DNA of 43,569 nucleotides from a virus. Position 1 is the stretch's first letter. Each line of letters opens with the position of its first letter. Of this stretch, positions 8,540 through 30,753 are shown piece by piece. The translations under genes and the position numbers were made by a program. Location: the IMG/VR virus record IMGVR_UViG_3300044844_000221, positions 1-43,569 of that record. One strand, given 5' to 3'. The notes under the pieces were generated by a model. That model was not told the origin of the DNA. It saw nothing but the letters and a program-made list of their open reading frames with translations, and ran no database searches.

Positions 8540-9685
8540 ATGAGTAATCGTAACAATGATGTTTTTAGAGTGTTACCAGTTACAGACTGTGACCTCTTAC
8601 CAGCAGGAGATGCTATAGAAGATTTGAACATTGGTCAATTAGGTGCATTTGATGCAGCTACTAACTTGGCTATTGATGCAACTACTTCTCCAATGCCAAA
8701 AGAAATTTTCTTTGCTTTGGCTTATCAAACTGATGCTGGGAATACTGACTACAGATTTTCTGCAGGTCAAGTAATCCAAAGACAAGGTGTAGTAGGTTTT
8801 ACTGAAAAACTTTGTTCTCAAGGATCTCCAATGAAAGTTACTGTAGGTAACTTCAAAGCTGAGTGTGATACTGAGTATGGAGTAAGAGTAGAATTCCGTA
8901 ATGCAAAAATCAACAGAATTCAAGGGTATAACCAATTTAGCAAAGCTTACATGGTTAAGACTCCTTGTTGTGATGATTGTGCTGAAGGATGTGGTAGTTT
9001 AGATGCTAATGTATTGACTCAGCTATTTATAGCTAATATCAATGCTGATGAAGCAGGTTTAGTAACAGCTCAAGCTGTTGCAAGACAACCTTTGACTACT
9101 GCTACTCATGGTACTTCTGTGAACTATGCTACAGGTGCTGTAATGACTGCTGCAGATGTTGCACAATTAATTGTGTTCAACTCTACTGCTGTTCCTGCTG
9201 CTTTAGTGTTTGCTGATTTCCAATTAGTAAGCCAACCATTAAGTATTGGTTCTTTCTGCCAAGTTAACTTACACTACTACAAATTATTAGAAACAGTTTT
9301 AATTGTTTCTTTAATTGAAGGTTTTGGATGTTCAGGTGCAACTACTGTTAATACTTACCCTACTTATGCAGAAGGTACAGGAATTAACATTCAGCAAAAA
9401 GAATACCATGCTTCAGGATGGGCAGGTTCAGGACCTTACAAATTGTCTCAAGTAACCGGTACTGCTTATGGCAATATTGTTTACTTAGCTGACAAGAACA
9501 CTAATTATGACCAAGTTATCTTGGAATATAACCAAACTTCTGAGTCAGGATGGCAAGAGTATAGTAATCCACTAAGTACAGTTTTTGCATTCCCATGTGA
9601 TGATTGTGAGTTAGATGAGACTATCACAGACTTATTGAGAGCCTTTATCACTAACACTCCTTTAAGTGAAGCGGTAGCACCTTAA
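8540..9685 (+). CDS. Abundant virion protein candidate (possible auxiliary capsid protein)
   Basis: This 381-residue protein is mostly Ala/Thr/Gly/Val-rich beta sequence with no membrane or signal segment. It is the fourth gene after the capsid gene, the last before a strong terminator, and like the capsid gene uses some CGT arginine codons. All this fits a high-copy shell or tail component. As I recall, the auxiliary capsid protein of the crAss-like phage PhicrAss001 occupies a comparable place; I cannot check homology. A CC-DDC-AEGC cluster is at residues 143-151, and a second CDDC lies near the C-terminus (about 354-357); both could bind metal or form disulfides. A tail-tube-like role is the main alternative. 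Confidence 0.5.
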   Translation: MSNRNNDVFRVLPVTDCDLLPAGDAIEDLNIGQLGAFDAATNLAIDATTSPMPKEIFFALAYQTDAGNTDYRFSAGQVIQRQGVVGFTEKLCSQGSPMKVTVGNFKAECDTEYGVRVEFRNAKINRIQGYNQFSKAYMVKTPCCDDCAEGCGSLDANVLTQLFIANINADEAGLVTAQAVARQPLTTATHGTSVNYATGAVMTAADVAQLIVFNSTAVPAALVFADFQLVSQPLSIGSFCQVNLHYYKLLETVLIVSLIEGFGCSGATTVNTYPTYAEGTGINIQQKEYHASGWAGSGPYKLSQVTGTAYGNIVYLADKNTNYDQVILEYNQTSESGWQEYSNPLSTVFAFPCDDCELDETITDLLRAFITNTPLSEAVAP

Positions 9686-9777: not shown

Positions 9778-10785
9778 ATGGCACTGAATTACACATACAT
9801 AAAGTATAAAGATGTCCATACTCTCCAAAATAATGAGGGTATAGATATGGATTATGAGATAATAAAAATTTCTTGTAATGCTTCTACTGTCTTAAGTACA
9901 GGGACTATGGTGCCAGGACAAACTATAACTTTAAATTTTGCTACAGATGGTAACTATACTATCAGTCTTTCTACAGCAAATGATGAAGATTCTTTTAGCA
10001 TTAAGTATTTTCAGAACTTACTTAAGTCTTTTATAACAGATGCTGAAAGAGTATTATGTGGTTGTGCTAAATGTGATGACTGTGCAGAGTGCAATGAGTG
10101 CCAAGATTACTTAGGGGCATTTATGAAGTCTTTTGCATTTAACTCTGTTAATGTTCCTCTTTATCAAGCTTATGTAGACTTAATTGCTCAGAGTGTAGTA
10201 TGTGATTTTACTGATGAAGTAATTTGCAGTTTAATACATGAAAAAGTATTTGGTTCTTCTTCAGTGAAAGAGCCTATGTTAAAAATACTGAGTTATTACT
10301 ATGCAGCTTTCTATTACAAAGATTACTATATGGCTGTAGATACTGAAGAAGAAAACTACATTACAACTAAGTACAAGTTTAATAAGATAGCTAAATGTAT
10401 TAAAAAATTAGGAGTAGATCCTGCAGAGATTATTGAGATATTTGAGAATGGAAGTATGGTATATTACTGGCAGTTAAACAATACACAAGATGACATTACA
10501 GATGTTATTCCTTTGCTTTCTCCAAATTATATTAGTGCAAAACCAAGTCTACTTCTTGAAACTTTTGAACAAGGGTATATTGTAAATTACTCTCAAGTAG
10601 GAAGAATTTGTTTTGCAATTATGCCAACTCAAATACAAAACTTTACTATTGAAGACAGCTTAAATAATGACATCACAAATGACTTTGATGTTCATTATGA
10701 AAGTGGTATGAGTTTAGCTCTGTTTGTATCTAAACTAGTGTACAGTTATAGTAATATTTACTTTAAATTTAAAAAAGGAATATAA
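9778..10785 (+). CDS. Cys-cluster virion protein, function unknown
   Basis: This is a 335-residue protein. I start it at ATG 9778 (MALNYTYIKY), not at the in-frame TTG 9754, because that TTG overlaps the promoter-like box TATATTTG. The first 75 residues are beta-rich (Thr/Ser/Asn-rich strands). Then comes a helix and an unusual cluster CGC-AKC-DDC-AEC-NEC at residues 94-108 with near-perfect CxxC spacing. The C-terminal half is helical and Tyr-rich, then beta. The stop overlaps the ATG of the next gene (TAATG), so the two are probably translationally coupled. It opens the fibre operon and could be a fibre base or adaptor. No known family recognised. Confidence 0.7.
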   Translation: MALNYTYIKYKDVHTLQNNEGIDMDYEIIKISCNASTVLSTGTMVPGQTITLNFATDGNYTISLSTANDEDSFSIKYFQNLLKSFITDAERVLCGCAKCDDCAECNECQDYLGAFMKSFAFNSVNVPLYQAYVDLIAQSVVCDFTDEVICSLIHEKVFGSSSVKEPMLKILSYYYAAFYYKDYYMAVDTEEENYITTKYKFNKIAKCIKKLGVDPAEIIEIFENGSMVYYWQLNNTQDDITDVIPLLSPNYISAKPSLLLETFEQGYIVNYSQVGRICFAIMPTQIQNFTIEDSLNNDITNDFDVHYESGMSLALFVSKLVYSYSNIYFKFKKGI

Positions 10786-13007: not shown

Positions 13008-15803
13008 ATGGCAGGTTTAGAAGAAAGACTAAGTAAATTAGAAAGTATACTTCACAGAGTATTGTGTTGTGATACTAATATATTTACAGGACCTCAAGGA
13101 CCACAAGGACCACAAGGTCCCCCTTGTGAACCATGTCCTCCTGGACCCCCTGGTCCTCCAGGACCTCCTGGGCCATCAGGTTTAAATTGGGAAGGAGAAT
13201 GGGTTCCTTGTGTAGTTTATTCTCAAAATGATGCAGTAGGTTATAATGGTGCTTCTTATTTTGTTATTTGTGAGACTAGTGATTCAGCTCCTTGTTATAC
13301 TTATGCAGTAACAGGAACAGGACTTTATACAGGAACAAATTGTGATGGAACTCCTTTTACTATTAGTGGAACAAGCTCTCCTCAATATATTTGTAGTTTA
13401 TTTGAAATACCTTCTACTGTTGGAGGATTAAATTTTGAACTTACTGATTTACCTCCAGCACCTATTGAAATTACATGTCCTTGTGTTAGAATTGAGTATA
13501 TAAGTGCCGGAACTTATGGAGGCACTTATCTTGATTGTGATAATGAGATACAAACTTGGAACATCACTGAGGCAGGGAATTCATATACAGATATTTGTAC
13601 TTTAGATCTTAATAGTATAATTACAAGTATAGGTGTAGATGATCCTGATTTTATTATAGTAAATGGTGAATGTGGTGATGGTTGTATTGCACCAACACCA
13701 AGTAATATGTGTTTCTTTATGGGAGGAGAAACTCCAGGAGGTAATTATTTTTGTAGTATTGAACCTGAAACAGGTTTAGTAAATGGAAAACCTTATTATA
13801 AATTATTTTTTCCAGACTGTACAACTCCATTTGCACCTGATAGTGAACCTGTATATGTATGGTTCTCTACATCAGGTGATTATGTAAATAAATGGGTTGT
13901 CTCTGAATTAAACAATGCAACAATAGGTAATGTATACTCATATATTCCTTCAGTTATCCAAGAGTATTTTCCTATAGGTGCTTGGCAAAATATTTTAGGA
14001 GATCAGTTTTTTGTATATGATTCTTCAACAGGAGATTGTTCAGAGACTATATGCTTTTCTATTTTTCAAGAATCTGAAGGGGATGAAAGTCCTCTTTTAG
14101 AGCAAATAGAATTACCAATATCAGGAAATGCTCCTTTTCAAAATGGTAGACCTGTTTATAATATTGAAGGACTTTCTCCTGGTACTGTATATTGGGAGAG
14201 TGGTCAATGGATTTATGCTTCTCAAGCTCTTCCTTCTATATTACAACCATTAAATAATGTTAATTACTATCCTATTGGTAATTATTCTGAATGGGGTGAT
14301 GCAACTCTAACAGGTTTAATGTATTCAAGTACATTAGGAGGTTGTCTTCCACCTGATACTTGTTTTACTTTTGGATTTGAAAGTCTAGGAGGACCTTCTG
14401 AATGTACTACACAAAGTTTAGGGTTTTATGCAAATAAACCTTATTATGAATTGTTACTTGATGATTGTATAACATCTCTTGGGTTATTTATTTGGTGGAA
14501 TGATTCATTAAATCAATGGAACATGACACCTGCTGTAGGAGATGATTCTTTTATAAGAATGTATAATGATTACCCGGGATTTACCCCAGAAAGTAGTTTT
14601 GCATATCCTTGGGTTTATGTAAGTGGACCAATCCTAGAACTTAATTCAACACTAGGACCATGTTTTTATCCTACTGAATGTCCTAGTACAGCATGTGCTC
14701 CTCCTGATATTAATCCTTGTTTTGCTTTACTTGCTAATCAAGGTGCTATAGGTCCACAAGGTCCTCCTGGAGTTGCAGGATTAAATGGTAATGATGGTTC
14801 TAATTCAGGAAGATGGAAATGGCATAGTGCTCAACCTGGTTTAGCAAATCCAGGTTCAACTTGGTTTAGAACAAGTAGTGTAAATTTTAATGCTCTTGAT
14901 AGAATTTATGTAAGTTTTAATGATATTAATAATACAGATTATGAAGATTGGTGGGTATTATTAAACAATCTTTACACAGATTATAATCCATTAATTTTTA
15001 TTCAAATAACTGAGGTGGGTTCTAATAATATTATTGGTATATACCAAGTAGATACTCAATTTCCTCTTCCTTTTGTTTTTTTTCCTGGTGCTTATGTAGC
15101 TATAAATTTAGAACCTATCTATGTAGCTAATGGAGTTTTTACTGCAAATAAAGACTACACTATTTCATGGTCTACACATGGAGGAACAGGTGGAAATGCT
15201 GCTTCTAAAACAGTAGGTAATATAATGGCTATCAATATGCCAGGTCAAGAACTTACTTATGATTTTAATATAGTTACATCAAGTAGTAAAACAGCTTGTG
15301 TTTATCTTCCTGATACAACTCAAGTAGGAAAAGAAGTAGTTGTGTTTTCTACAAAGACTGGAAATGTAGGGTTCTATGTTCAATCTAATTCTGAAATTAC
15401 AATAGACCCTAGTCTTGCCCTTCCTGTATCTACAGGATTTTTAACCACTCATGGTATAGAAGAAGGGGATAGTAATTATTTTGTTTACCCTTCTGGAAAC
15501 TATAAATTTACTTTCTTAGGTAATACTGCTGCAGGAGGTAAAGCTTTTTGGAATATGGAAGCACTACCTAATACTTATTTTACATTGACTCCTGGAGATA
15601 ATCTTGAAGATTCTTCTACAGAATTATTTGCTCAGTATTATACAGCTTCTACTGTTCCATTAAATAGTACTTCTTTGTATACACTTTTTCCTGACTTATT
15701 ACCTGGAGAACAAGTTTTTGCACCTTATCAACCTGGAGGGCCTAAGATATTTATTAAGACTCCTTTTAGTTGGTACTCAACAAATTTAACTATTGTAACA
15801 TAA
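13008..15803 (+). CDS. Collagen-like fibre with tandem Cys/Trp repeats
   Basis: This is a 931-residue fibre. Residues 1-22 (EERLSKLESILHRVLCC) are a short amphipathic coil ending in Cys-Cys, shared with the fibres at 19678 and 22714. Residues 28-58 are GPQ/GPP collagen triplets interrupted by CEPC. A CBM5/12-like module follows (W..VVYSQNDAVGYNGASYFVI, about 60-90). Then come Cys-rich beta domains, including three degenerate units starting near residues 259, 379 and 476. Each unit begins N-K/R-P-x-Y, has a central W..W pair, and ends C near a Y-P-I-G or Y-P-W block. A second collagen stretch (GPQGPPG) and a C-terminal beta domain follow. It probably binds host surface glycans. The stop overlaps the next ATG. 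Confidence 0.75.
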   Translation: MAGLEERLSKLESILHRVLCCDTNIFTGPQGPQGPQGPPCEPCPPGPPGPPGPPGPSGLNWEGEWVPCVVYSQNDAVGYNGASYFVICETSDSAPCYTYAVTGTGLYTGTNCDGTPFTISGTSSPQYICSLFEIPSTVGGLNFELTDLPPAPIEITCPCVRIEYISAGTYGGTYLDCDNEIQTWNITEAGNSYTDICTLDLNSIITSIGVDDPDFIIVNGECGDGCIAPTPSNMCFFMGGETPGGNYFCSIEPETGLVNGKPYYKLFFPDCTTPFAPDSEPVYVWFSTSGDYVNKWVVSELNNATIGNVYSYIPSVIQEYFPIGAWQNILGDQFFVYDSSTGDCSETICFSIFQESEGDESPLLEQIELPISGNAPFQNGRPVYNIEGLSPGTVYWESGQWIYASQALPSILQPLNNVNYYPIGNYSEWGDATLTGLMYSSTLGGCLPPDTCFTFGFESLGGPSECTTQSLGFYANKPYYELLLDDCITSLGLFIWWNDSLNQWNMTPAVGDDSFIRMYNDYPGFTPESSFAYPWVYVSGPILELNSTLGPCFYPTECPSTACAPPDINPCFALLANQGAIGPQGPPGVAGLNGNDGSNSGRWKWHSAQPGLANPGSTWFRTSSVNFNALDRIYVSFNDINNTDYEDWWVLLNNLYTDYNPLIFIQITEVGSNNIIGIYQVDTQFPLPFVFFPGAYVAINLEPIYVANGVFTANKDYTISWSTHGGTGGNAASKTVGNIMAINMPGQELTYDFNIVTSSSKTACVYLPDTTQVGKEVVVFSTKTGNVGFYVQSNSEITIDPSLALPVSTGFLTTHGIEEGDSNYFVYPSGNYKFTFLGNTAAGGKAFWNMEALPNTYFTLTPGDNLEDSSTELFAQYYTASTVPLNSTSLYTLFPDLLPGEQVFAPYQPGGPKIFIKTPFSWYSTNLTIVT
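13089..13181 (+). repeat. Collagen triplet block, GC-rich island
   Basis: This stretch encodes about ten Gly-x-y triplets (GPQ, then GPP/GPS) split by PPCEPCPP. The repeated GGxCCx codons make this one of the most GC-rich spots in the AT-rich window, with near-identical 9-base units (ggaccacaa) that could recombine or slip. Confidence 0.85.
13782..14690 (+). repeat. Three degenerate ~100-120-residue units in the 931-residue fibre
   Basis: Units begin at nt 13782 (NGKPYYKL), 14142 (NGRPVYNI) and 14433 (NKPYYELL). Each carries a W-containing strand pair and a later Y-P-I-G or Y-P-W block ending with G-x-C. The resemblance is at protein level only. They look like tandem beta-sandwich or lectin-like domains. 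Confidence 0.6.
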
Positions 15804-16627
15804 TGGCACTACTAGACTTAGAAAAAATTAAAAAAGACATCAACATACTATTTGGATATGTTAGATGTCTTATGGCTAAATCAGATGAGAATTGTCCTTT
15901 AGTGGCTACAGAGTGGTCAGCAAATCACATTAATGCTACAGGTAATCCTTATATTGCAGGTACTTATGTATTTTACAATGGTCATGTATACAAATGTCTT
16001 TTTAATAATGAAGGCATATTACCTACTAATACAACTTATTGGTTAGACTTAGGAGAAGGACACTTACTTGCTGAAGAACAAAGTGATTGGAATGCTACAG
16101 GAGGAAGAAGATTTATCCGTAATAAACCTACTAACACTTCTGACTTTATTAATGATGGAGAAGATGGTAGTAGTCCTTATGTGACTCAAGATGAGTTAAA
16201 TAATTCATTAGTTATTCAGAATCTTGATGAGGTATTAGCAGAAGGAGATCAAGCACCTACAAGAGGAGCTTACATAGAAGAAATAGGCTTTTGGGATAAT
16301 TTTTCTGCTCCTTTTGGTTATGCTAAAATTTATGCTGATAAAAGTAGAGTGTGGTTTAGGAGTAAACTTGGAAACAGTATGCTTTGGATAGCAGAAGGCA
16401 GTTTTGCTTTAGTTAAAAGTCCTTTTACTTTTACATTTAATACTCAAAATTTAACAAATAACAGAACTGCTACATTTAAAAATGAATCTGGAGTAGTAGC
16501 TTATATGAATGATATTCCTGGTCAGTATACTTTAGTAGAACATGCAGATAATGCAGCAGCTATTACAGCAGGATTACCTGTAGGTAGATTATATAGAACA
16601 GGAGATATAGTTAAAGTAGTTCATTAA
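15803..16627 (+). CDS. Short fibre protein with CBM-like module and YRTGD end
   Basis: This 274-residue protein starts at ATG 15803 inside the stop of the upstream gene (TAATG); an in-frame TTG at 15770 lies within the upstream gene and is rejected. The N-terminus is a short helix (LEKIKKDINILFGYVRCLM) recalling the anchor helix of the neighbouring fibres. Residues about 36-80 (IAGTYVFYNGHVYKC...TYWLDLG) look like a CBM5/12-type carbohydrate-binding module. The linker SDWNATGG..FIRNKPTNTSDFINDGEDG is a type common in phage fibres. The C-terminus (AAAITAGLPVGRLYRTGD) matches the short trimerisation-like end seen in many Bacteroidota phage fibres. Probable role: receptor-binding fibre or its adaptor. 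Confidence 0.7.
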   Translation: MALLDLEKIKKDINILFGYVRCLMAKSDENCPLVATEWSANHINATGNPYIAGTYVFYNGHVYKCLFNNEGILPTNTTYWLDLGEGHLLAEEQSDWNATGGRRFIRNKPTNTSDFINDGEDGSSPYVTQDELNNSLVIQNLDEVLAEGDQAPTRGAYIEEIGFWDNFSAPFGYAKIYADKSRVWFRSKLGNSMLWIAEGSFALVKSPFTFTFNTQNLTNNRTATFKNESGVVAYMNDIPGQYTLVEHADNAAAITAGLPVGRLYRTGDIVKVVH

Positions 16628-16643
16628 TTAAATACATATAACA

Positions 16644-16781: not shown

Positions 16782-16782
16782 T

Positions 16783-16790: not shown

Positions 16791-16808
16791 TAACTCAAAG
16801 TTCAGGCT

Positions 16809-18122: not shown

Positions 18123-18124
18123 TT

Positions 18125-18501: not shown

Positions 18502-19203
18502 ATGTTTATAAAAGAAGTCATAGAAAGAATCCAATCTCTTTATTCTAGAGGGGTATCTAGTGATGAGTCTAGGTTATCTGACAGACATGTCTATAACAAA
18601 ATCTTGTCAGTTAGGATGCAACTTATATCTCAGCAACTTAAAAAGAAGCAGAGAATAAGTGATTGGAACTATTCTATATTACCTTGTGTTGAACTAATTA
18701 AAGTTCCTAATCATGAATGCCCTTGTCTTGGAGATTTGGGTTGTGATGTTTATAGAACTAAATTTAAGATACCAAGAGTATTGACAGATTCTAATAGACA
18801 TTACATAGAGTTTGTAATGTCTGTTGAAAGTGGATTAAGAATAGAAGAAGTATCAAGACAAGGTGTACTTTATTTAAGAGGTAATAAATACACTGGGTTT
18901 AAACCTAAGTATCTTTTTGAAAATGGGTATTTGTATTTTCCAATACAGAAATCTCCAGGTGTAGTTAAGATTAAACTTCTTGCTGAAGATCCTCTAGAAG
19001 CTATGCACTATCCTTCTATTTGTGATGATTGTCAAAATTGTACAGATTGTATTCCTGCACCTGATCATGAATTTGCTATAGATGGAGATTTAATTGAGCC
19101 ACTAATTGATATATGTGTTGCAGAAATTATTGGTGTATTTGCAGGAAGAGGAGAAGATACTGCTAATAACTCAAGAGATATACAAAGACCTGAAGGTAGA
19201 TAA
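18502..19203 (+). CDS. Probable connector/ring virion protein with CxxC cluster
   Basis: This 233-residue protein has an N-terminal helical region (residues 1-55, EVIERIQSLYSRG...YNKILSVRMQLISQQLKKK), a central beta domain (about 60-160), and a C-terminal helix (EPLIDICVAEIIGVFAG) with a short polar tail. The helix-beta-helix layout and a position just before the IHF-like gene fit a head-tail connector of crAss-like phages. A regular cluster CDDC-QNC-TDC occupies residues 174-183, and a CPC-x5-C group is at about 74-81. These could bind Zn or Fe or form disulfides. The stop overlaps the next ATG (TAATG). Confidence 0.58.
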   Translation: MFIKEVIERIQSLYSRGVSSDESRLSDRHVYNKILSVRMQLISQQLKKKQRISDWNYSILPCVELIKVPNHECPCLGDLGCDVYRTKFKIPRVLTDSNRHYIEFVMSVESGLRIEEVSRQGVLYLRGNKYTGFKPKYLFENGYLYFPIQKSPGVVKIKLLAEDPLEAMHYPSICDDCQNCTDCIPAPDHEFAIDGDLIEPLIDICVAEIIGVFAGRGEDTANNSRDIQRPEGR

Positions 19204-19677: not shown

Positions 19678-21969
19678 ATGTCAAAATCTATTCAAGAGAG
19701 ACTTAAAAGATTAGAGTATCTATACAGATGCTTATGTAATAGACCATCAGAAGAAGGCCCTCAAGGTCCCCAGGGAATCCAGGGTATACAAGGGATTCAG
19801 GGTATTCAGGGTATACAGGGTGTACAAGGGCCTAATGGAAATGATGGAACAGGAGTAACTATCCTTGGTTCTTATCCTGATTATGCAACTTTAATTGCTA
19901 ATCATCCTACAGGAAATGTAGGAGATAGTTATATAACTTCTGACACAGGACATCTTTGGGTATGGAGTGCTACTTCAAATACTTGGGTAGATGTTGGTAA
20001 TATAACAGGACCACAAGGCATTCAAGGAATCCAAGGTCTAGAAGGCCCACAAGGAGTGCAGGGGATTCAAGGAATCCAAGGTCCTCCTGGCACTGGAGGT
20101 GGAGGAGAGTCTTGTCCTGATCACTTTAAGTTAGCTGCAGTATCAGGAAAATTTAGTTCAGATAGTGGCAACTCTCCTTCTAATTTAAAAAAGATGTTTA
20201 GTGGAAATCAGGAATTAGGTTGGTCTTATGGAGATTATAATGATACTACACCAAATGATACATTTGGTAATTTAATTTCTCTAAAGTTCACTGACAGTTA
20301 TTTTGGTATTCCTCTTCCTATAGATTTGAATGCAGGAGATACAGTAAGAATTTCTGGAATTGCATATATTATATTAGGACCAACAGACCCTGTAAATCCT
20401 AATTTTTATGTGACTGTTTCCCATTTTAATTGTTCAGATGTAAGTAGCAAAACTGACCCTACTCCTTTGTATACAATAATACCTGTTGCTAAATATGGGG
20501 TTCCTTTAGACACTTTAAAAGTTTGTTTTTCAGAATCTGTTGTTTTAAGTTCTGTATTGGCTGCAAATGAAACATTTTTTGTTGTAGGTTTAGGAATAGG
20601 TAATGATGATACTTTTGTTTCAGTTGATGTTAGATTTTCTTATTCATTAGATGTTACTCAGGTTTGTATTGGTACAGGAGAAAACTTATTTATTAGAAAC
20701 TGTTGTGACCCAGCTTACTCAGAAATTATTCTTAATAATGGAACCCCTGTTGGAGGTTCTTTTGTTGATGATGATGGAAACTGTTGGACTGTAGAAGCAT
20801 TAACAACAGATCCTGTAGACTCAGTTAGAACTTTAAGTAATTCTTATCAAACTTGTTCTGCATGTATTGCTAGTAATCCATGCCCTCAAAACTTTGCAAT
20901 AGAATCTTGCTGTGGAGATGAAAGTCAAACATTTTCAGCAGCTTTAATTGGTGTTAATGTGGGAGATACCTTTGTTGATACAAATGGTTTTTGTTGGAGT
21001 GCAAAAGAATTAACATCTCTTCCTATTACAAATGTAGTAGATGTAGATACAGTTTATCCTGAAACAACTTGTTTAAGTGCAGAATGTCAAACAGCTAATG
21101 ATTGTCCTACTATAGTAGAGATAAGATCTTGTTGTGGATCTTTAAGAGGAAATACTACATTAGAATTACTTCAAGCCGCATTACCTAGTCTTGTTTTAGG
21201 TGATACTTTTGTTGATACATTTGGAATGTGTTGGGAGATAAGAGACTCTCTTTATTCTTTCCCTGACTTATCATTTATTGTTCCTGTTACAGAATATCAA
21301 CCAGCGGGATTAATCTCTGGTTGTGATATTTGTGTAACAGCTAATGAGTGTCCACCTGAATTCTACTATACATTACAAAATTGTTGTACAGAAGAGATTG
21401 AAGTAGTTCTTTTACAACCTTTGTATAGTATAGGAGAAACATTACTAATATCATTTACAACAGGTTTTGGTTGCTATGAAGTATTATCTTGGAGTGACAC
21501 AGGAACAGCTACAGCTACTCCTGTAGATCTTGGAGGAGTATATGAAAATTGTGAACAGTGTACTGCTAATCTTAATCAGAATTTTACTCCATATTGTCCA
21601 GGAAAACTTCAATGTTGTAGTGACTATAAAAACCTTACTGAGGCAAATGAGTCTGGATTTATTACTGGTTATAAGTGTGATGGAACTTGGGTTCAAGATT
21701 TTGAACTAGCTCCAGGTGCAAGAATATGTATGGCACAAGTTCTTCGTAAGTCAGAATTTGTAACTAAAGTAGATTGTTGTGGATTTGATATTTTAAACCC
21801 TAGTTTAACTCAAAGTATGGTAGTATCTTATCAAACTTGTTTAGGAGAGGAAGGGAATCAAGAAATACCACCAAACACTTTATTATCTACTGTTATAGAA
21901 ACTTGTGTAGAGTGTGTTAGAAGATTAGATGATACTGATAATGACTTTGTATATGTACCTTGTACATAA
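19678..21969 (+). CDS. Collagen-like fibre with repeated Cys-Cys domains
   Basis: This is a 763-residue fibre. Residues 1-21 (SIQERLKRLEYLYRCLC) match the N-terminal anchor of the fibres at 22714 and 13008. Two collagen blocks follow at residues 27-52 and 111-138, flanking a module GSYPDYATL...LWVWSATSNTWVDVGN that also appears in the 22714 product. After a beta domain, the C-terminal half (from about 341) has six Cys-Cys doublets at residues 342, 411, 485, 569, 646 and 700. Most begin a unit with G-x-x-F-V-D-x-x-G-x-C-W in the middle and a CxxC near the end. It is a receptor-binding or head-fibre candidate. Disulfide or metal stabilisation is likely but unproven. Confidence 0.75.
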   Translation: MSKSIQERLKRLEYLYRCLCNRPSEEGPQGPQGIQGIQGIQGIQGIQGVQGPNGNDGTGVTILGSYPDYATLIANHPTGNVGDSYITSDTGHLWVWSATSNTWVDVGNITGPQGIQGIQGLEGPQGVQGIQGIQGPPGTGGGGESCPDHFKLAAVSGKFSSDSGNSPSNLKKMFSGNQELGWSYGDYNDTTPNDTFGNLISLKFTDSYFGIPLPIDLNAGDTVRISGIAYIILGPTDPVNPNFYVTVSHFNCSDVSSKTDPTPLYTIIPVAKYGVPLDTLKVCFSESVVLSSVLAANETFFVVGLGIGNDDTFVSVDVRFSYSLDVTQVCIGTGENLFIRNCCDPAYSEIILNNGTPVGGSFVDDDGNCWTVEALTTDPVDSVRTLSNSYQTCSACIASNPCPQNFAIESCCGDESQTFSAALIGVNVGDTFVDTNGFCWSAKELTSLPITNVVDVDTVYPETTCLSAECQTANDCPTIVEIRSCCGSLRGNTTLELLQAALPSLVLGDTFVDTFGMCWEIRDSLYSFPDLSFIVPVTEYQPAGLISGCDICVTANECPPEFYYTLQNCCTEEIEVVLLQPLYSIGETLLISFTTGFGCYEVLSWSDTGTATATPVDLGGVYENCEQCTANLNQNFTPYCPGKLQCCSDYKNLTEANESGFITGYKCDGTWVQDFELAPGARICMAQVLRKSEFVTKVDCCGFDILNPSLTQSMVVSYQTCLGEEGNQEIPPNTLLSTVIETCVECVRRLDDTDNDFVYVPCT
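19756..19833 (+). repeat. Collagen block 1 with 9-bp tandem units
   Basis: Six consecutive 9-base units of the form GGnATnCAr (19774-19827, one with GTA in place of ATn) encode GIQ/GVQ triplets. Near-identity at DNA level invites slippage, so length may vary between related phages. Confidence 0.9.
20008..20091 (+). repeat. Collagen block 2
   Basis: Gly-x-y triplets (GPQ, GIQ, GLE, GVQ, GPP) continue the fibre shaft after the LWVW module. DNA units resemble those of block 1 but are less uniform. Confidence 0.85.
20698..21969 (+). repeat. Tandem Cys-Cys units in the fibre C-terminus
   Basis: Cys-Cys doublets start at nt 20701, 20908, 21130, 21382, 21613 and 21775, that is 54-84 residues apart. 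The first three units clearly share GxxFVDxxGxCW; the others are degenerate. This is a protein-level repeat, not a DNA repeat. Confidence 0.75.
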
Positions 21970-22711: not shown

Positions 22712-22713
22712 CA

Positions 22714-23844
22714 ATGGGAAAGTCAATCCAAGAAAGATTAGTAGCTTTAGAGAGAAATCTAAGAGGGTTGTGTTGTAAAGTAGGAGAAGGAACTTCTACT
22801 CCAGGACCACAGGGAATACCAGGTCCTCAAGGTATTCAAGGTGTTCAGGGAGAACAAGGAATACAAGGTGAAACAGGTGCTGCTTTGACAGTGTTAGGTT
22901 CTTATCCTGACCTTCCTTCATTTTTAGCTGGTGCTGGTGGTAGTCCTGGTCTTCCAGGTACTGCATGGATTATAGAATCAGATGGTTCTTTATATGTATG
23001 GCACACACTAACTAATACTTGGGATGATGTAGGTGATTTGCAAGGGCCTCAAGGATTACAAGGTATTCAAGGGGTGCAAGGAGAGCAAGGTCCACAGGGT
23101 AATCCTGGACTACAAGGAATACAAGGACTATCAGGTTTTGAATGGGATCCTTCAAGAATAGGTTCAAATGGTTATTTAATTGGTGACATTGTAAATTACT
23201 TAGGTAACTATTATATATGTATAGCAAATAATGATGCATTGCTTCCTCCTTTTTCATTAGGAGTTTATTGGAATCCTTATTCCTTTGTAGGACCTATGGG
23301 TCCTCAAGGACCTCAAGGTAACCCAGGCCCTTCTATGAGTCTATTTGCTCAAACAGCTAATAGCACTATTGTTACAAATACAACAGCTGAAACAACAATT
23401 ATTGGTGCAGGTGTAGGAACATTGAGTGTTCCTGCTAATGGATTTACTGTTGGTGATAGTTTTAGAGCTGTTTTTGGTGGTGTTATGAATGCTAATAATA
23501 ATCAAACTATTAGAATTAGAATGAGAACAGGATCCACTCTTCTTTTAGATAGTGGTGTACAAAGTCTTGGAAGTAGTGTTGTAGATGATGTGTGGAGTTT
23601 AAATGTTGATTTTACAATTAGACAAATTGGAGGTACTGGTGTAGCATCTATTGTATCATTAGGTAGTTTTCATTACACAAAAACTAATAATGCTTCTGTT
23701 CAAGGATTTGGATTTAATGTGGTGAATAACACAACATTCAATACAACAATTATTAATACATTAGATGTCACTGTAGAATGGGGATCTGCTAGTACAGGTA
23801 ATAATATATACAGTGATATTTTTATACTAAACAAAACATATTAA
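22714..23844 (+). CDS. Collagen-like fibre, 376 residues
   Basis: N-terminal anchor SIQERLVALERNLRGLCC (residues 4-21) is close to that of the 19678 gene. Collagen block 1 (about 31-55) is followed by the module GSYPDLPSF...LYVWHTLTNTWDDVGD, collagen block 2 (about 111-140), a CBM5/12-like module (YLIGDIVNYLGNYYICIANN, about 155-175) and a third short collagen stretch (GPMGPQGPQGNPGPS). The C-terminal ~165 residues form a Thr/Asn/Val-rich beta domain (from about 210) of the kind that caps trimeric fibres. The likely role is host-surface binding. The C-terminal head is unrelated in sequence to that of the 19678 fibre, so the two may offer different specificities on one shared shaft. Confidence 0.78.
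   Translation: MGKSIQERLVALERNLRGLCCKVGEGTSTPGPQGIPGPQGIQGVQGEQGIQGETGAALTVLGSYPDLPSFLAGAGGSPGLPGTAWIIESDGSLYVWHTLTNTWDDVGDLQGPQGLQGIQGVQGEQGPQGNPGLQGIQGLSGFEWDPSRIGSNGYLIGDIVNYLGNYYICIANNDALLPPFSLGVYWNPYSFVGPMGPQGPQGNPGPSMSLFAQTANSTIVTNTTAETTIIGAGVGTLSVPANGFTVGDSFRAVFGGVMNANNNQTIRIRMRTGSTLLLDSGVQSLGSSVVDDVWSLNVDFTIRQIGGTGVASIVSLGSFHYTKTNNASVQGFGFNVVNNTTFNTTIINTLDVTVEWGSASTGNNIYSDIFILNKTY
22804..22878 (+). repeat. Collagen block 1 of the 376-residue fibre
   Basis: Encodes about eight Gly-x-y triplets (GPQ, GIP, GIQ, GVQ, GEQ, GET), similar in style to the block at 19756. Confidence 0.85.
23044..23136 (+). repeat. Collagen block 2 of the 376-residue fibre
   Basis: Encodes about ten Gly-x-y triplets (GPQ, GLQ, GIQ, GVQ, GEQ, GNP, GLS) between the LYVW module and the CBM-like module. 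Confidence 0.85.
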
Positions 23845-23854: not shown

Positions 23855-24883
23855 ATGAATCAAAGATTTCAATATGTTACAGTAGATACAATCCTATCTA
23901 AGTATCTAAGAGACTTCAGAGGCAATGAGCTTAATGAAGATGATGCTATTGAATGGATAGGAGAAGCTTTAGGGCACATGAAAATGGCTACTCTTTCTGA
24001 GGAAGCCATTGCTTTTTTAGAGGTAAAAAACTATCAAGCTGCTTTACCAAATGGATTACACTATATAATTCAAGTAGCAAAGAATAATGCTTGGACACCT
24101 ACTGAAAAAGTAGTGTGTACTCCTCAAGCTATTATCACAGAATTAGTTCCAGAAACACCTCAAACAGGTTGTGGATGTTCTACTTGTTGTAGTACTCCTG
24201 CAAATGATATGGTATTATTGGATTGCCAAGGAGAGTTGATAGCTGATCCTGAAGTAGGTTATTACAGACCTTACTTTGATCTTCAATATGAATACTTGGG
24301 TTGGGTTCACTCTAAATCATTTAGAACTAAATTCACCCCGGTAAGGTTGGCTAATCACACTTTTTTTAATACCTTAGTGTGTCAAAATGTAGCCAGTGAT
24401 GGTCTATACAATAACACTAACTATCTTGCTGATGAGTACAGCATAGTTGAAGACCAACTTAGATTCAGTTTTAAAGAAGGACTTGTAGCTGTGGCTTATC
24501 TTAGAACTAAGGTAGATTTAGAAACAGGTTATCCTTTAGTTCCTGATGATGAGTCAGCTAAAGCAGCTATTACTTACTACTTAGGTTGGAAAGTAAAAGA
24601 AAGAGAAGCTTGGAATCATAGAGAAGGTGCTATGCAGATTGCACAAGTTGCTGAAGCAAGATGGTTAAAGTATATCAAACAGTTTAGAAACAAAGCCAAG
24701 ATGCCTTGGGGAACTGATGACTATGAAGACCTTATGGAACAAGGAAATTACCTATTGCCAAGAAACAAAAGATACTATGGTTTCTTTGGTAAATTAGGAA
24801 GAGCAGAAGATAGAATCTTTAATGATCCTACCTTCACAAACAAATACAGATACACATCAGGTAACTCAGCTTATATGAGATAA
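23855..24883 (+). CDS. Probable tail ring/stabilisation protein (P22 gp4-like role)
   Basis: This 342-residue protein begins with a helical domain (TVDTILSKYLRDFRGNELNEDDAIEWIGEALGHMKM) typical of crAss-like connector proteins. A beta-rich centre holds an inserted cluster CGC-STCC (residues 106-112), and the C-terminus is helical (AAITYYLGWKVKEREAW...AEARWLKYIKQFRNKAKMP), followed by a basic Tyr-rich tail. It lies two bases upstream of the giant muzzle gene, where crAss-like genomes place a tail stabilisation/ring gene. The name by analogy with P22 gp4 is structural, not a close sequence match that I can confirm. Confidence 0.68.
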   Translation: MNQRFQYVTVDTILSKYLRDFRGNELNEDDAIEWIGEALGHMKMATLSEEAIAFLEVKNYQAALPNGLHYIIQVAKNNAWTPTEKVVCTPQAIITELVPETPQTGCGCSTCCSTPANDMVLLDCQGELIADPEVGYYRPYFDLQYEYLGWVHSKSFRTKFTPVRLANHTFFNTLVCQNVASDGLYNNTNYLADEYSIVEDQLRFSFKEGLVAVAYLRTKVDLETGYPLVPDDESAKAAITYYLGWKVKEREAWNHREGAMQIAQVAEARWLKYIKQFRNKAKMPWGTDDYEDLMEQGNYLLPRNKRYYGFFGKLGRAEDRIFNDPTFTNKYRYTSGNSAYMR

Positions 24884-24885: not shown

Positions 24886-27800
24886 ATGGCTCAAGAAGAT
24901 AACAACCAAGATAGCAAAAAGACAAACCCTCTAGGAAATATTAATATCAGTGGAGGGTTAAATACTGACTCCTCTTTAGTAACTCAACCTGTAGGAACCA
25001 CAAGATTTGTGATGACAGGAGTAAATGAAACTAAAGAAGGAGATTATGGTTTTATAGCAAATGAAGAATCTAACCAAGAGTGTTATGATTTTAATGTTGG
25101 CACAATATTAGGTCCTGGCTATGTACCAATAGGTAAAGTGTATATTGGGGATGAGAATAGTTTAATATTTTTAGCTAACCCTAATGGAAACTCTGCAGGT
25201 ATTATTGTAGATAAAGACTGTAATGTAACTGTATCTTTTAGTGATAAAAATCAAACAGAGAAATTTGGTTTTAAAGTAACTGAACAGATTGATGCTACTT
25301 TTAGATTAAGAAGAGGTTGTGAAAGAGTTGTCTATTGGATTGACCCAAAACCTAGAATGTTTATTCTTGACAAAGAAGAAGAGTTTAAAGATCCTGTTAC
25401 AGGAGATTGGGATGTTTCTAAATTTAACTTGTTTAAAACTTACAAGAAGATTCCTGTTGTTGTAGATTTAGAAGTTATTGATGCAGGTGGAGTATTAGCT
25501 CCTGGTTCTTATAACTTCTCTTTTCAGTATCTTGATGAAGATTTTAATCCAACAGAATTTGTTACAAGTACTGAGACTATCATGATTTACAATACTCCTT
25601 CTACTTCTACTTACAGAGAGAAGAGAGGAGCTACAATGGAAAAGAATGATTCTTATTTAAACTTTGAAGTTAGTAATAAAGCTATAAAAATAGTTTTAGA
25701 TCCTAACTCTTTAGATACAACTTATCCTTTCTACAGAATAGCTATAACTGAATCTAATGCAGGAGGAGGATTAATTAGTGATACTAAGTTTACTTCTGAA
25801 ATTTCTACAAAGAACACCACCTTTTATTATACAGGACTTAACTATGAAAGTTCAGGTAGTCAAGCTGAAGTAACTATGTTTAACAACATAATTGAAAAAG
25901 CTCAAAGCATAGAACAGATTGAAAATAGATTAGTATTAGGAAATATAGAAGGAAAGCAAATTAATTACTGTAAACTTCAAAAGTATGCAAGTAAAATTAA
26001 TGCTGATGTAATTACTAAAACAATTACTGTTACTGAAGCTGACTCAGGTAATGCTAAAGATCCTTCTGCCCATTTTAATGGTATAGGTTATATGCCAGGG
26101 GAGATTTATTCTTTTGGTATTGTGTATATCTTTGAAGACAACTCTGTTTCTCCTGTGTATCATATCCCAGGTAAACCTGCTTCTCTTCCTGTAAATCACA
26201 TGTTTACAGCAGGACCTACTATTTATCCTATGAGTAATATTAATAATGCTTGTACTGATACAAGATATATTGATAATAATACTTGTGGTGAAGATAGTTA
26301 CTGGGGAGAAGATTCTCAAGGAAATTCATTATCTAATGATGCTGTTAGGCATCATAGGTTTCCTTTAAGAACTGACTATAACATTCCTTTTGTTACAAAA
26401 GTACCCACTAGTGTAGCTACTAATTTTGTTAAAACACTTATTATTTCTGTGACTAAAGCAGGAGCAATTTGTCCTGCAATTTGTTCTTCAACTGCTCCTA
26501 GTAGTTGTAGTGACACTTTAGCAAACTTTGGAGATCCTGTAAATAGAGGTCCATATACTTTTGATATAAATTTTACTGAAGATTTAGCACCAGGTGTTAT
26601 TACTACTACTATTGACCCTTATGTATGGAAAGTAGCAGTAGGAGATAATGTTACACATAATGTTAGTTATGATGCTCAATCAGGAGTATTATATGGAACT
26701 TCAGTTTTAATCACAAGTATTGTAGAAAATTTTGAATACCCTACCCCACCTACTACAGTAACTTTAACAGGACCTACTTTAGATCCTATTACTGGTTTTT
26801 ATTATTATACAGGAAATTCTCCTGACTCAGATATGACCTATAAGATTACTATAGCTATTGGTACACAAGATTTTGAAACTCCTTTATATACTGCTGAAAT
26901 TTTTGGTATAAATTTTTCTAATATCCATAAACCTTCTTTAGCAGATACTAATGGACAAGAAATAACTGGTTATTATATTGTTAGACATGAAAGAAAAGAA
27001 TCAGACAGAACTATTGTTGATAGTGCTGTTTTGACTTCAACTACTAAAGAAAAAAACTTTGTAGCTCAAGGTCTTTTATTTCCTCAATATGCTACTCCTG
27101 GAGAACAGACTGCAAGAATTAAAAAAGATACTGTAGGGTTAATTTATCCAGAACATAAATTTAATAATAGAAAGTACTCTACTTTTAGTAGGATTATCCA
27201 ACAAGGAAAGTTTGCTAAAGTAAAAACTATAGTAAGTAGAAGTAAAACTAGAGATGTTGCTGATGGTTCCGGGTATGTATCAGGTAAACATAAATCAGGA
27301 GAAAGTGATGATGATGGATTTACTTTACAGATTAAAACTAGAGATAACATTACTAAATTTACAGGTACACCTAATGGGTTTACTTTAGATAATACTAATA
27401 TAAAAGAGTTGTATTATTTATCTGCTTTAGAAGATAAGTTAACTCAAGACAGTGTTGATTTTGGAATTGATGTCTTTAACTTAGCTTGTGATAATAAAGT
27501 AGGTATCATTCACTTAAAACAAGATTATACTTTTGGTACTGTTTCTAGTTTACCTTATGTGTATTTATGTAGAGATATAGTAGAACCTTACTCTAATTTT
27601 AGATTAGACCCATATTACAAAGAAAGTAGAAACCCTGAGACTTTTAGTCCTATAACTAATTCTTCTACTACAGCTATTTGGAATGGAGATAGTTATATTA
27701 GTTCTATAAGATATGTAAACAGTGTTTACTTTGATACTAGAATGAAAAAAAGAGCAGGTAAGACTTCTGTTTGGAATTATATTATTGCTTTTGTACTTGT

Positions 27801-30753
27801 AGTAATAGCTGTAGTAATAGCTGTATTTACTTGGGGAGCAGGAACAGCAGGTTCTATAGCTTTAATAGGATTAGCAGCAGGTCTTGTAGGTGTTGCTACT
27901 ACTCTAGTTCTTTCAGGTATAAAACAAGATGCTTGGAACAAAGCATATAACATTTTATACAATCAAGGATTAAGAGTAACTATTACTGACTCTTATATGC
28001 AAGATGACACAGACCCTGTTTCAGGATATGCAAGAGGATTTAGAAAAAATCCTGAAGATGATGAAATACAATGGTTAGGAGATTGTGCTAATCTTTGGTT
28101 TGAGTCTTCAGTTAATATGGGTCTAAGACATGGTGCCACTGACAATACTCCAGACTTTTTAAATGCTCCTGGTTTAATTGAATCAGGAACAACTGTAGTA
28201 GAAGGAGAACATGAGTATTTTGGTATCTATTCTCAAAACATTAGTGAGATAGCACCAACTAATGCTCTTGATTTCCACATGCTTAAAAAACTAACTTATC
28301 TAGATGCAAATAGAAAAGGAGGTAGAGCTTACATTGGTTTAGCTGCTGCTGAAATTTATCTTTTGAATCCTGACTATACAAGAAGAAATAAACAAAAAAT
28401 GTATAACCACTTAGGGTTAGAATATGATTGTTGTTCAGATTGTGTAGAAACTTTTCCTCATAGATTTCACTGGTCAGAACAAGCTTTTCAAGAAGAAGTT
28501 ACTGATAACTTTAGAATGTTCTTACCTAATAACTATAAAGATCTTGAAGCTGAGACAGGTGAGGTTACTGACATTTACAGGATTCAAAATAATTTATATA
28601 TCCATACTGAAGAAGGTCTTTGGCATTGCCCTCAAACTTTCCAGGAAAGGGTTACATCTGACATTATATCTTTTATTGGAACAGGAGAATACTTTTCTAT
28701 TCCTCCTAGAAAGATTGTAGATGATAATAACTCTTCTGCAGGTAATATACATAAGTGGGCAAGAACTAAAACTAAGTTTGGAGTTCTTTTCCCATCTTGG
28801 AAAGAAAAGAAATGGTATTTATTTGATGGTCAAAACCTTAAACCTATTAGTGATAATGGTAATAGTAACTACTTTAAAACTCACATGGATTTTATAGTAG
28901 CACAACAATACTATTCAGCTAATTTTAGGAATTACCCATACTTAAATAACCCTTCTAATCCTATAGGAGTAGGGTTCTTATCTACTTATGATACTAATAA
29001 AGAAAGACTTATTGTAACTAAGAAAGACCTTAAGATTACTAACTTACCTACACAAAGTTATGAGATTTGTACTGAAGGGGGTCAAGTAATTATCTTTCCT
29101 AATATGGCTCAAGTAATAGCAGATAGACTTGCTGATGGTTGGAACTATGTAGGTATAGAAGATTGTAAGATGAAGTTTGAAAGAACTACTTATGAGACAG
29201 TAACTACTACTGCTAATCAATATACTTCTATTGCTAATGATATGGATATTTGGGCATTCTTTGATACTTCAGGTTCTTTCTCAGGTCCAGATTTAGCTCA
29301 AATAGATGCTAGTTTAGATGCTTGGATTCTTAATGATTTAGATCCTACACCTTGGGCAGGTAATGTTTATAAAGTAAATACAAATACAGAAAAATGGTTA
29401 GATTTTCCTAATCAAATACCTCTAGCAGACAGAGGTAAAGTTCTTCTTATTTCATTTGTAAATGAGGCTGAAGATTGGCCTGGGAATCCTTATCATGGAG
29501 GAGGGTTAAATTTTGCAGGTCAACCTACTTCCACTTATATAACTCACTATAATGCTTTTACTGGTGCAGGTGGTGTGTATTCTACCTTTACTAAATTTAT
29601 AGGTATAAATTATCCTATTGCTACAGTAGCTACTTCTAAAGCTTTTATACTTCACTCTTTAGCTGCTATTAAAGGATATGATTATAATATTGATGAAGTA
29701 AATGATTTAGTTGTAAATAATTATTTTTCTACAGCAGAGTGGACTTCTTTAAAATCTCAGTTGTTAAATAATCCTTATAAAACTTTATTAGCTCCTAATG
29801 GAGAACCTGGACTAGAACAATGGGGTTGGATTGTAAAACCTGACAGAAGTAATGCAGGTAGTCCTGCTAGTGCTAATTGTCCTGCTAGTACATTGATTAT
29901 TTCTCCTTGTCAGTTTGCTGAAGATATGAATGCAATTCTTGCTTCTCTAGTAGAAGTAATTGAAGTAGAAGTAACTAATGAATATCCTGTAATTGAAATT
30001 GAATATGAAGAAGGAGAAGTGTTTGTACCTCAAACTTTAAATAATGGTTACACTATGTCTTACTCTTTAAAAAGAGAAGAGTGGGTAGGATGGCATCCAT
30101 ATATTCCTAGTTTCTATATGCATGTTCAAGAGAAGTTTTATTCTTGGCCACAAGGTTCTAGATACTTATGGAAACATAATAGACCTAACCACTATCAAAC
30201 TTTCTATGGTACTTACTATCCTTTTATAGTAGAGTATGTAGATAACCCAAGTCCAATAACAACTAAGATATGGGATAGTTTAATCTTGCAAACAGAAGCT
30301 AAAAAATTTAGTACTGTACATGAAGAATACATAGATCAAAGATTTGTAACTTTTAATAAAGCTTTGTTTTATAATACAGAACAAATAAGTGGTGTTATTA
30401 CTTTGGTGCCTAAGCAAGATAGTAGTCTAACTTATCTTTCTCAGCAAACTAGTAATGCACCTGGAACAATGACTATTGATAGAAATGAAAGAGATTGGAG
30501 TCTTAACTCTTTAAGAGATATAAGAGTAAACACTACTATCCCTATGTTTTTAAAAGATCTTTCTTCTGTACAAAGTAATTACTACATAGATAAAGTAGTT
30601 AATCCTACTGCTATTAATTACAATAAGAGTTGGTCTGAATTAGAAAGTTTCAGAGATAAGTTCTTGGTAGTAAGGTTAATATTTGATAACTTTGCTGATA
30701 CAAGATTAATCTTTAACTTTTCAGCTTTACAGAAAGAGCAATCAGAAAGATAA
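24886..30753 (+). CDS. Giant tail 'muzzle' (tail tubular-like) protein
   Basis: This 1955-residue protein fits the crAss-like tail nozzle/muzzle protein, the beta-rich distal tail complex with a role like P22 gp10. The N-terminus (LGNINISGGLNTDSSLVTQP...YVVN-type start) and the long runs of beta-propeller-like sequence with YRI(A/T), W and Gly turns fit. Near the middle (residues about 964-1012, nt 27775-27921) lies a long hydrophobic stretch, IIAFVLVVIAVVIAVF followed by a Gly/Ala-rich second half, followed by a soluble domain (TITDSYMQDDTDPVSGYARGFR). A YDCCSDC group is at about 1181-1186. The C-terminal part has W-rich strands (SLKREEWVGWHPYIPSFYMH). Conformational release of the hydrophobic part during ejection is an attractive idea, not evidence. 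Confidence 0.78.
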   Translation: MAQEDNNQDSKKTNPLGNINISGGLNTDSSLVTQPVGTTRFVMTGVNETKEGDYGFIANEESNQECYDFNVGTILGPGYVPIGKVYIGDENSLIFLANPNGNSAGIIVDKDCNVTVSFSDKNQTEKFGFKVTEQIDATFRLRRGCERVVYWIDPKPRMFILDKEEEFKDPVTGDWDVSKFNLFKTYKKIPVVVDLEVIDAGGVLAPGSYNFSFQYLDEDFNPTEFVTSTETIMIYNTPSTSTYREKRGATMEKNDSYLNFEVSNKAIKIVLDPNSLDTTYPFYRIAITESNAGGGLISDTKFTSEISTKNTTFYYTGLNYESSGSQAEVTMFNNIIEKAQSIEQIENRLVLGNIEGKQINYCKLQKYASKINADVITKTITVTEADSGNAKDPSAHFNGIGYMPGEIYSFGIVYIFEDNSVSPVYHIPGKPASLPVNHMFTAGPTIYPMSNINNACTDTRYIDNNTCGEDSYWGEDSQGNSLSNDAVRHHRFPLRTDYNIPFVTKVPTSVATNFVKTLIISVTKAGAICPAICSSTAPSSCSDTLANFGDPVNRGPYTFDINFTEDLAPGVITTTIDPYVWKVAVGDNVTHNVSYDAQSGVLYGTSVLITSIVENFEYPTPPTTVTLTGPTLDPITGFYYYTGNSPDSDMTYKITIAIGTQDFETPLYTAEIFGINFSNIHKPSLADTNGQEITGYYIVRHERKESDRTIVDSAVLTSTTKEKNFVAQGLLFPQYATPGEQTARIKKDTVGLIYPEHKFNNRKYSTFSRIIQQGKFAKVKTIVSRSKTRDVADGSGYVSGKHKSGESDDDGFTLQIKTRDNITKFTGTPNGFTLDNTNIKELYYLSALEDKLTQDSVDFGIDVFNLACDNKVGIIHLKQDYTFGTVSSLPYVYLCRDIVEPYSNFRLDPYYKESRNPETFSPITNSSTTAIWNGDSYISSIRYVNSVYFDTRMKKRAGKTSVWNYIIAFVLVVIAVVIAVFTWGAGTAGSIALIGLAAGLVGVATTLVLSGIKQDAWNKAYNILYNQGLRVTITDSYMQDDTDPVSGYARGFRKNPEDDEIQWLGDCANLWFESSVNMGLRHGATDNTPDFLNAPGLIESGTTVVEGEHEYFGIYSQNISEIAPTNALDFHMLKKLTYLDANRKGGRAYIGLAAAEIYLLNPDYTRRNKQKMYNHLGLEYDCCSDCVETFPHRFHWSEQAFQEEVTDNFRMFLPNNYKDLEAETGEVTDIYRIQNNLYIHTEEGLWHCPQTFQERVTSDIISFIGTGEYFSIPPRKIVDDNNSSAGNIHKWARTKTKFGVLFPSWKEKKWYLFDGQNLKPISDNGNSNYFKTHMDFIVAQQYYSANFRNYPYLNNPSNPIGVGFLSTYDTNKERLIVTKKDLKITNLPTQSYEICTEGGQVIIFPNMAQVIADRLADGWNYVGIEDCKMKFERTTYETVTTTANQYTSIANDMDIWAFFDTSGSFSGPDLAQIDASLDAWILNDLDPTPWAGNVYKVNTNTEKWLDFPNQIPLADRGKVLLISFVNEAEDWPGNPYHGGGLNFAGQPTSTYITHYNAFTGAGGVYSTFTKFIGINYPIATVATSKAFILHSLAAIKGYDYNIDEVNDLVVNNYFSTAEWTSLKSQLLNNPYKTLLAPNGEPGLEQWGWIVKPDRSNAGSPASANCPASTLIISPCQFAEDMNAILASLVEVIEVEVTNEYPVIEIEYEEGEVFVPQTLNNGYTMSYSLKREEWVGWHPYIPSFYMHVQEKFYSWPQGSRYLWKHNRPNHYQTFYGTYYPFIVEYVDNPSPITTKIWDSLILQTEAKKFSTVHEEYIDQRFVTFNKALFYNTEQISGVITLVPKQDSSLTYLSQQTSNAPGTMTIDRNERDWSLNSLRDIRVNTTIPMFLKDLSSVQSNYYIDKVVNPTAINYNKSWSELESFRDKFLVVRLIFDNFADTRLIFNFSALQKEQSER

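What the first reader, a model, noticed from the sequence alone, without database searches (positions are those of the whole stretch)
8966..28450. Regular cysteine clusters in many virion proteins
CxxC-type clusters occur in proteins at 8540 (C143-C151), 9778 (C94-C108, seven Cys in 15 residues), 18502 (C174-C183), 23855 (C106-C112), 24886 (C1182-C1186) and in the fibres. Their cores are alike (CDDC, CAEC, CNEC, CDDCQNC). Such repeated clusters in separate, adjacent structural proteins are odd for a phage assembled in a reducing cytoplasm. They may be Zn/Fe sites or redox-sensitive clasps holding shell, connector and fibre together.
Basis: partly seen in the sequence, partly recalled or inferred. 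Interest (0 to 1): 0.72.

Follow-up and report, generated by a model that had tools for sequence, protein, structure and literature searches.

The report
Disulfide-type cysteine clusters in crassvirus collar
This gut-crAssphage relative from a metagenome carries conserved clusters of cysteines in the proteins that join its tail, fibres and shell; they most likely form disulfide staples like those already seen in one crassvirus structure, while the proteins it injects are almost free of cysteine.

Summary
The cysteine clusters are real, at the stated places, and strongly conserved; one count was wrong (six Cys, not seven, in 15 residues). The window is a crassvirus fragment related to Flavobacterium phages Fpv1/Fpv3. 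The clusters sit in ring protein 1 (23855), ring protein 2 (18502), the probable fibre-docking hub protein (9754), the probable capsid auxiliary protein (8540) and the muzzle (24886). In the published cryo-EM structure of PhicrAss001, disulfides join hub to hub, hub to R1/R2, and R1 to R2. The outer Cys pair of the window's R2 cluster aligns with a pair that PhicrAss001 also has. The inner pair is present or absent as a pair, with at least five changes on the tree, which fits disulfides better than a four-ligand metal site. So "clasps between connector and fibre" is likely right, Zn/Fe is not supported, and "odd for a phage" is out of date. New here: an expanded thiol set (R2 four, hub loop up to six, an R1 insertion, auxiliary and muzzle clusters absent in PhicrAss001), fibres sharing a helix-CC tail, and almost Cys-free cargo proteins (0.02-0.14%). 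Not shown here: any bond or metal; hub identity rests on gene order and fold type.

The parts
8966..8992 (+). CCDDCAEGC cluster (C143-C151) of ORF 8540, probable capsid auxiliary protein (gp36-like)
   Evidence: Cys kept in 38-45 of 47 relatives; no cluster in Steigviridae gp36 homologues
8540..9685 (+). ORF 8540, probable capsid auxiliary protein (AUX)
   Evidence: gene order MCP/gp33-like/ring 3-4/AUX; profile match to gp36 family E=3e-5, probability 72%; structure search inconclusive
10057..10101 (+). CGCAKCDDCAECNEC cluster (C102-C116) of ORF 9754/9778
   Evidence: lies in a low-confidence loop between two helices of the model
9778..10785 (+). probable tail hub protein (THA, gp38-like); TTG start at 9754 also possible
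   Evidence: directly downstream of AUX like gp38; model = Ig-like beta domain + helical domain; no sequence match to gp38
18685..18744 (+). second four-Cys set C62/C73/C75/C81 of ring protein 2
   Evidence: 49-52 of 54 relatives; partly shared with PhicrAss001 R2
19021..19050 (+). CDDCQNCTDC cluster (C174-C183) of ring protein 2
   Evidence: outer pair 52-53 of 54, inner pair 40 of 54; 4<->2 changes at least five times
18502..19203 (+). ring protein 2 (R2, gp40 homologue)
   Evidence: Pfam CrAss_Ring_2 E=4e-37; PDB 7qog_C E=3e-14; profile-profile E=1e-39
24170..24190 (+). CGCSTCC cluster (C106-C112) in an insertion of ring protein 1
   Evidence: insertion relative to gp43; Cys number 0-6 among relatives
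23855..24883 (+). ring protein 1 (R1, gp43 homologue)
   Evidence: Pfam CrAss_Ring_1 E=2.5e-56; PDB 7qog_B E=2.8e-13; profile-profile E=9e-42
28429..28443 (+). CCSDC motif (C1182-C1186) of the muzzle protein
   Evidence: EYDCC-SDC in 40-44 of 44 relatives; absent from aligned PhicrAss001-group muzzles
24886..30753 (+). muzzle protein (gp44 homologue)
   Evidence: Pfam crAss_MUZ E=4e-32
13008..13070 (+). fibre N-terminal segment ending in CC, before collagen-like repeat
   Evidence: same N-terminus in relatives
19678..19737 (+). fibre N-terminal segment ending in CLC, before collagen-like repeat
22714..22776 (+). fibre N-terminal segment ending in CC, before collagen-like repeat
30781..43569 (+). 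cargo-position proteins C1, C2 and gp47-like RNA-polymerase-associated protein (partial): 1 Cys in 4,246 residues

Best explanation
The clusters are thiol donors for a disulfide-stapled tail collar of a crassvirus. R1 and R2 form stacked rings under the portal; the hub protein (probably ORF 9754) forms a collar on them and holds the fibres, whose N-termini carry a helix-like segment ending in CC or CxC. After lysis exposes the particle to oxidant, Cys in the loops of R1, R2 and the hub pair within and between chains and lock barrel, collar and fibres together. In PhicrAss001 such bonds were published as seen by cryo-EM (R1-R2, hub-R1/R2, hub-hub); here the same collar has a larger thiol set. 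Clusters in the auxiliary protein and muzzle are probably lineage-specific additions with a similar stabilising role. Shown here: sequence, conservation, identity of R1, R2 and muzzle, shared R2 Cys pair, paired change of the inner R2 Cys. Inferred: bond formation, partners, hub identity, timing.
For: (1) R1, R2, muzzle and MCP match crassvirus families. [quoted passage not shown]). (3) R2 outer pair C174/C183 aligns with PhicrAss001 C170/C178, and at least two Cys occur in this loop region in all nine Steigviridae R2 proteins examined. (4) R2 loop has 4 Cys in 38 and 2 in 11 of 54 relatives, only 3 with three and 2 with one; 4<->2 changes at least five times on the tree. (5) Hub: cluster plus helix-pair Cys add up to an even number in 36 of 40; odd clusters go with odd helix counts, Fisher P=6e-4, not corrected for kinship. 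(6) Cys is concentrated in outer tail, fibre and auxiliary proteins (2-5%) and nearly absent from cargo. (7) In Milano, fibre Cys38 residues form disulfides with baseplate proteins.
Against: No bond was observed here; residue pairs of the PhicrAss001 bonds (Extended Data Table 2) could not be read, so it is not known that C170/C178 are the bonded residues. The PhicrAss001 bonds could themselves form during aerobic purification. The hub assignment has no sequence support. The R1 cluster lies in an insertion absent from gp43 and is poorly conserved in detail. Auxiliary and muzzle clusters have no PhicrAss001 counterpart. PhicrAss001 fibre gp22 has no Cys in its docking tail. No THB (gp39) equivalent was identified.
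Confidence: 0.7

Rival explanations
1. Metal sites: the four-Cys loops (R2 CX2CX2CX2C, hub six-Cys loop, auxiliary CCX2CX3C) bind Zn or an Fe-S cluster that shapes the loops, as the lambda gpL-type hub does with an iron-sulfur cluster.
For: The spacing resembles ferredoxin- and zinc-type motifs (own knowledge); tail hub proteins with a four-Cys Fe-S cluster exist. The muzzle motif is followed by fairly common His (FPHRxHWS).
Against: Inner R2 pair changes as a pair at least five times with the outer pair retained, which removes a four-ligand site; spacing varies; hub cluster size is 3-6; muzzle His are not kept wherever the Cys are; no metalloprotein family match in Pfam.
Confidence: 0.13
2. 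Disulfides, but only inside single chains: each loop is a small disulfide-bonded knob that stiffens its own protein, with no cross-linking between proteins.
For: Even Cys numbers and paired change fit intrachain pairs equally well.
Against: Published PhicrAss001 collar bonds are between proteins; highly conserved isolated Cys in the hub (C41, C215) and R1 (C176) suit partners elsewhere.
Confidence: 0.14
3. No common function: Cys-rich loops arise from relaxed, repetitive Asp/Glu/Cys-rich linkers and look alike by composition.
For: Within-protein shuffles give only P=0.07 for R2 and 0.13 for the muzzle.
Against: Near-invariance of Cys in otherwise fast-evolving proteins (hub: 4 of 9 invariant columns are Cys at 27% mean column identity).
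Confidence: 0.03

Closest known systems
Disulfide-stabilised tail barrel and fibre-docking collar of Bacteroides phage PhicrAss001 (Bayfield et al. 2023, PMC10172136)
   Same: Homologous R1, R2, muzzle and MCP; similar structural gene order; R2 Cys pair in the homologous loop; Cys-rich protein directly after the auxiliary protein gene; Cys-poor cargo
   Different: R2 loop has four Cys instead of two; six-Cys loop in the hub candidate with no sequence match to gp38; Cys-bearing insertion in R1; clusters in auxiliary protein and muzzle absent there; fibres with helix-CC tails; no THB found; bonds not observed here
Flavobacterium phages Fpv1/Fpv3/FpV4 (Fipvunavirus)
   Same: Nearest annotated cultured relatives: R1 55%, R2 54%, MCP 81% identical; same clusters in R2, hub candidate, auxiliary and muzzle
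   Different: R1 cluster is shorter (CC); hub cluster has five Cys plus a compensating one in the helix region; different fibres
Agrobacterium phage Milano disulfide network (PMC10811340)
   Same: Cys-enriched structural proteins; disulfides lock tail parts; fibre Cys38 bonds to tail proteins
   Different: Contractile myophage; proteins not shown to be related
Fe-S tail hub proteins of the lambda gpL type
   Same: Four Cys in a virion tail protein
   Different: No sequence match found; the fourfold Cys set is not obligatory here

Membership tests
Crassvirales virion module | Crassvirus major capsid protein | tested here: met
   Pfam Crass_capsid E=1.8e-160
Crassvirales virion module | Ring proteins R1 and R2 | tested here: met
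   CrAss_Ring_1 E=2.5e-56, CrAss_Ring_2 E=4e-37; PDB gp43/gp40
Crassvirales virion module | Muzzle protein | tested here: met
   crAss_MUZ E=4e-32
Crassvirales virion module | Ring protein 3/4 | tested here: inconclusive
   CrAss_Ring_3_4 E=4e-5, 23 bits, below the 27-bit cut-off; gene order fits
PhicrAss001-type disulfide collar | Hub protein THA homologous to gp38 | tested here: inconclusive
   Same gene position and beta + helical architecture; no sequence match; gp38 not among the structure matches listed
PhicrAss001-type disulfide collar | Hub protein THB (gp39) | not tested
   No dedicated profile search was made; no obvious candidate ORF next to 9754
PhicrAss001-type disulfide collar | Cys at homologous positions of R2 | tested here: met
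   C62 and C174/C183 align with C60 and C170/C178
PhicrAss001-type disulfide collar | Disulfide bonds between R1, R2 and hub in the virion | not testable with these tools
   Needs mass spectrometry or cryo-EM
Four-Cys metal site (Zn or Fe-S, gpL-type) | All four ligand Cys retained among homologues (R2 loop) | tested here: not met
   Only two Cys in 11 of 54, at least five 4<->2 changes on the tree
Four-Cys metal site (Zn or Fe-S, gpL-type) | Bound metal | not testable with these tools
   Needs ICP-MS or density

The most novel reading that the evidence does not exclude
The virion is redox-partitioned: a Cys-rich outer collar, fibre anchors, shell and muzzle form a multi-protein disulfide-exchange network that is locked outside the cell and loosened by thiol exchange at the host surface to free the gate, while the proteins that are extruded have been purged of Cys so that they cannot be caught in the network or mis-oxidised on the way. 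The purge may be a general rule for ejected phage proteins.
Probability: 0.15. Interest if true: 0.75.

Novelty: new variant of a known kind. Interest (0 to 1): 0.5.

Why it matters
It extends a disulfide collar published for one gut phage to an environmental crassvirus lineage with a larger, conserved thiol set, and makes it testable in cultured relatives (Fpv1/Fpv3) whether virion disulfides set particle stability. The Cys-free cargo gives a simple sequence signature that may help to identify ejected proteins and constrains how giant RNA polymerases pass the tail and envelope.

Tried and rejected
Direct sequence link of ORF 9754 to hub gp38: hmmsearch, hmmsearch --max and profile-profile found none. 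Sequence and structure searches of the auxiliary protein in the PDB: no usable match; the gp36 assignment rests on a weak profile match plus gene order. Foldseek and VIA for the hub model listed mainly Ig-like domains over residues 1-80; gp38 was not listed, which excludes nothing. Pfam gave no family for ORFs 8540 and 9778. A scan with the C2 cargo protein found one relative, so cargo statistics came from ORFs downstream of the muzzle and from annotated phages. Cys numbers of auxiliary and hub clusters were tabulated per genome, but a correlation between proteins was not tested. Papers searched for an earlier report of Cys-free ejection proteins: none found in the held library, which lacks many journals. 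The argument that Cys-free cargo proves an oxidised virion was dropped: passage through an oxidising periplasm would explain it as well.

Full report
What the window is. The record is a 43.6-kb virus fragment. Its proteins match crassvirus families: major capsid protein (Pfam Crass_capsid, E=1.8e-160), ring protein 1 (E=2.5e-56), ring protein 2 (E=4e-37) and muzzle (E=4e-32). Ring protein 3/4 matches weakly, below Pfam's cut-off. The nearest annotated phages are Flavobacterium psychrophilum phages Fpv1, Fpv3 and FpV4 (R1 55%, R2 54%, MCP 81% identical).

Observation. All listed clusters exist at the stated residues. ORF 9754/9778 has six, not seven, Cys in 15 residues. A second four-Cys set in ORF 18502 (C62, C73, C75, C81) was missed. 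CxxC occurs 16 times against 4.3 +/- 2.0 in within-protein shuffles; the hub, R1 and auxiliary clusters are individually unlikely (P=0.0005, 0.006, 0.03), R2 and muzzle less so (0.07, 0.13), and the fibres 13008 and 19678 not at all.

Conservation. Relatives were collected from viral contigs with R1, hub, auxiliary and R2 queries. Among distinct full-length sequences, R2 keeps C62, C73, C75, C81, C174 and C183 in 49-53 of 54; the hub protein keeps C41, C102, C107, C110, C150 and C215 in 37-39 of 40 although its mean column identity is only 27%; the auxiliary protein keeps C143, C147, C151 and C264 in 42-45 of 47; the muzzle keeps CC in 44 of 44 and the third Cys in 40 of 44. R1 is looser: its cluster lies in a variable insertion with 0-6 Cys.

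Identity of the proteins. R1 and R2 match the solved PhicrAss001 ring proteins gp43 and gp40 (E=2.8e-13 and 3e-14) and their Steigviridae families by profile-profile comparison (E=9e-42 and 1e-39). ORF 8540 follows ring 3/4 as gp36 does and matches the gp36 family weakly (E=3e-5, probability 72%). ORF 9754 follows it in the position of the hub gene gp38; its model (mean pLDDT 85) is an Ig-like domain plus a helical domain and a further C-terminal beta part, with the six-Cys loop between two helices at low confidence. No sequence method linked it to gp38, so this is inference from gene order and architecture.

Mechanism. [quoted passage not shown] The outer R2 pair here aligns with gp40 C170/C178, and all nine Steigviridae R2 proteins examined have at least two Cys in that loop region. 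In 54 R2 relatives the loop has four Cys in 38, two in 11, three in 3 and one in 2, with at least five 4<->2 changes on a tree built without the loop; that tree has some long branches whose places are unsure. In the hub, cluster and helix-pair Cys sum to an even number in 36 of 40, and odd clusters go with odd helix counts (Fisher P=6e-4, not corrected for kinship). Paired change is expected of disulfides and not of a four-ligand metal site. Which Cys bond to which is not known.

Fibres. Fibre ORFs 13008, 19678 and 22714 begin with a short helix-like segment ending in CC or CLC before a collagen-like repeat, and related contigs share this start. In Milano, Cys38 of the short tail fibre bonds to baseplate proteins (PMC10811340). 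PhicrAss001 gp22 lacks such a Cys.

Cargo. Proteins in the cargo position are almost Cys-free: window 1 in 4,246 residues, Fpv1 3 in 7,357, PhicrAss001 7 in 7,478, phi14:2 6 in 6,990, cr85 2 in 5,374, DAC15 7 in 4,878, against 1.25-1.37% in sampled non-virion proteins of Fpv1, PhicrAss001 and phi14:2. Among relatives, 74 ORFs downstream of the muzzle hold 14 Cys in 57,461 residues; muzzles hold 1.01%. Ejected proteins of N4 (0 in 4,294), T7 (1 in 2,261) and P22 (0 in 1,309) behave alike. Avoiding cross-links while unfolding through the tail, or mis-oxidation in the periplasm, would both explain it; these are inferences.

Verdict. Most likely a conserved, enlarged version of a known disulfide collar. 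Metal binding is not excluded but is disfavoured for R2. Bonds, partners and any redox trigger remain to be tested.

Noticed in passing
30781-43569: Cargo-position proteins (C1, C2, gp47-like) have 1 Cys in 4,246 residues; the same depletion holds in other crassviruses (0.04-0.14%), in 74 ORFs downstream of the muzzle in relatives (0.024%), and in ejected proteins of N4, T7 and P22 (0-0.04%). No earlier report found in the held papers.
   Followed up: partly
19678-21969: Fibre protein with 40 Cys in 763 residues, with repeated units of the form CxxC...C...CC...FCW after a collagen-like repeat; possibly disulfide-rich tandem domains.
   Followed up: no
13008-23844: Several fibre genes share a helix-like + CC/CLC N-terminus, as if several fibres use one docking site.
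   Followed up: partly
18685-18744: Second conserved four-Cys set in ring protein 2 (C62, C73, C75, C81), partly shared with PhicrAss001.
   Followed up: partly
L052:11239-12513, L049:5189-6442: Hub candidates with a Ser/Gly-rich linker inserted inside the Cys cluster, which then has four Cys instead of six.
   Followed up: no
L002:13140-15131: Fpv1 fibre-like ORF begins with a Cys-rich N-terminus (6 Cys in 26 residues), a different docking tail from the window's.
   Followed up: no
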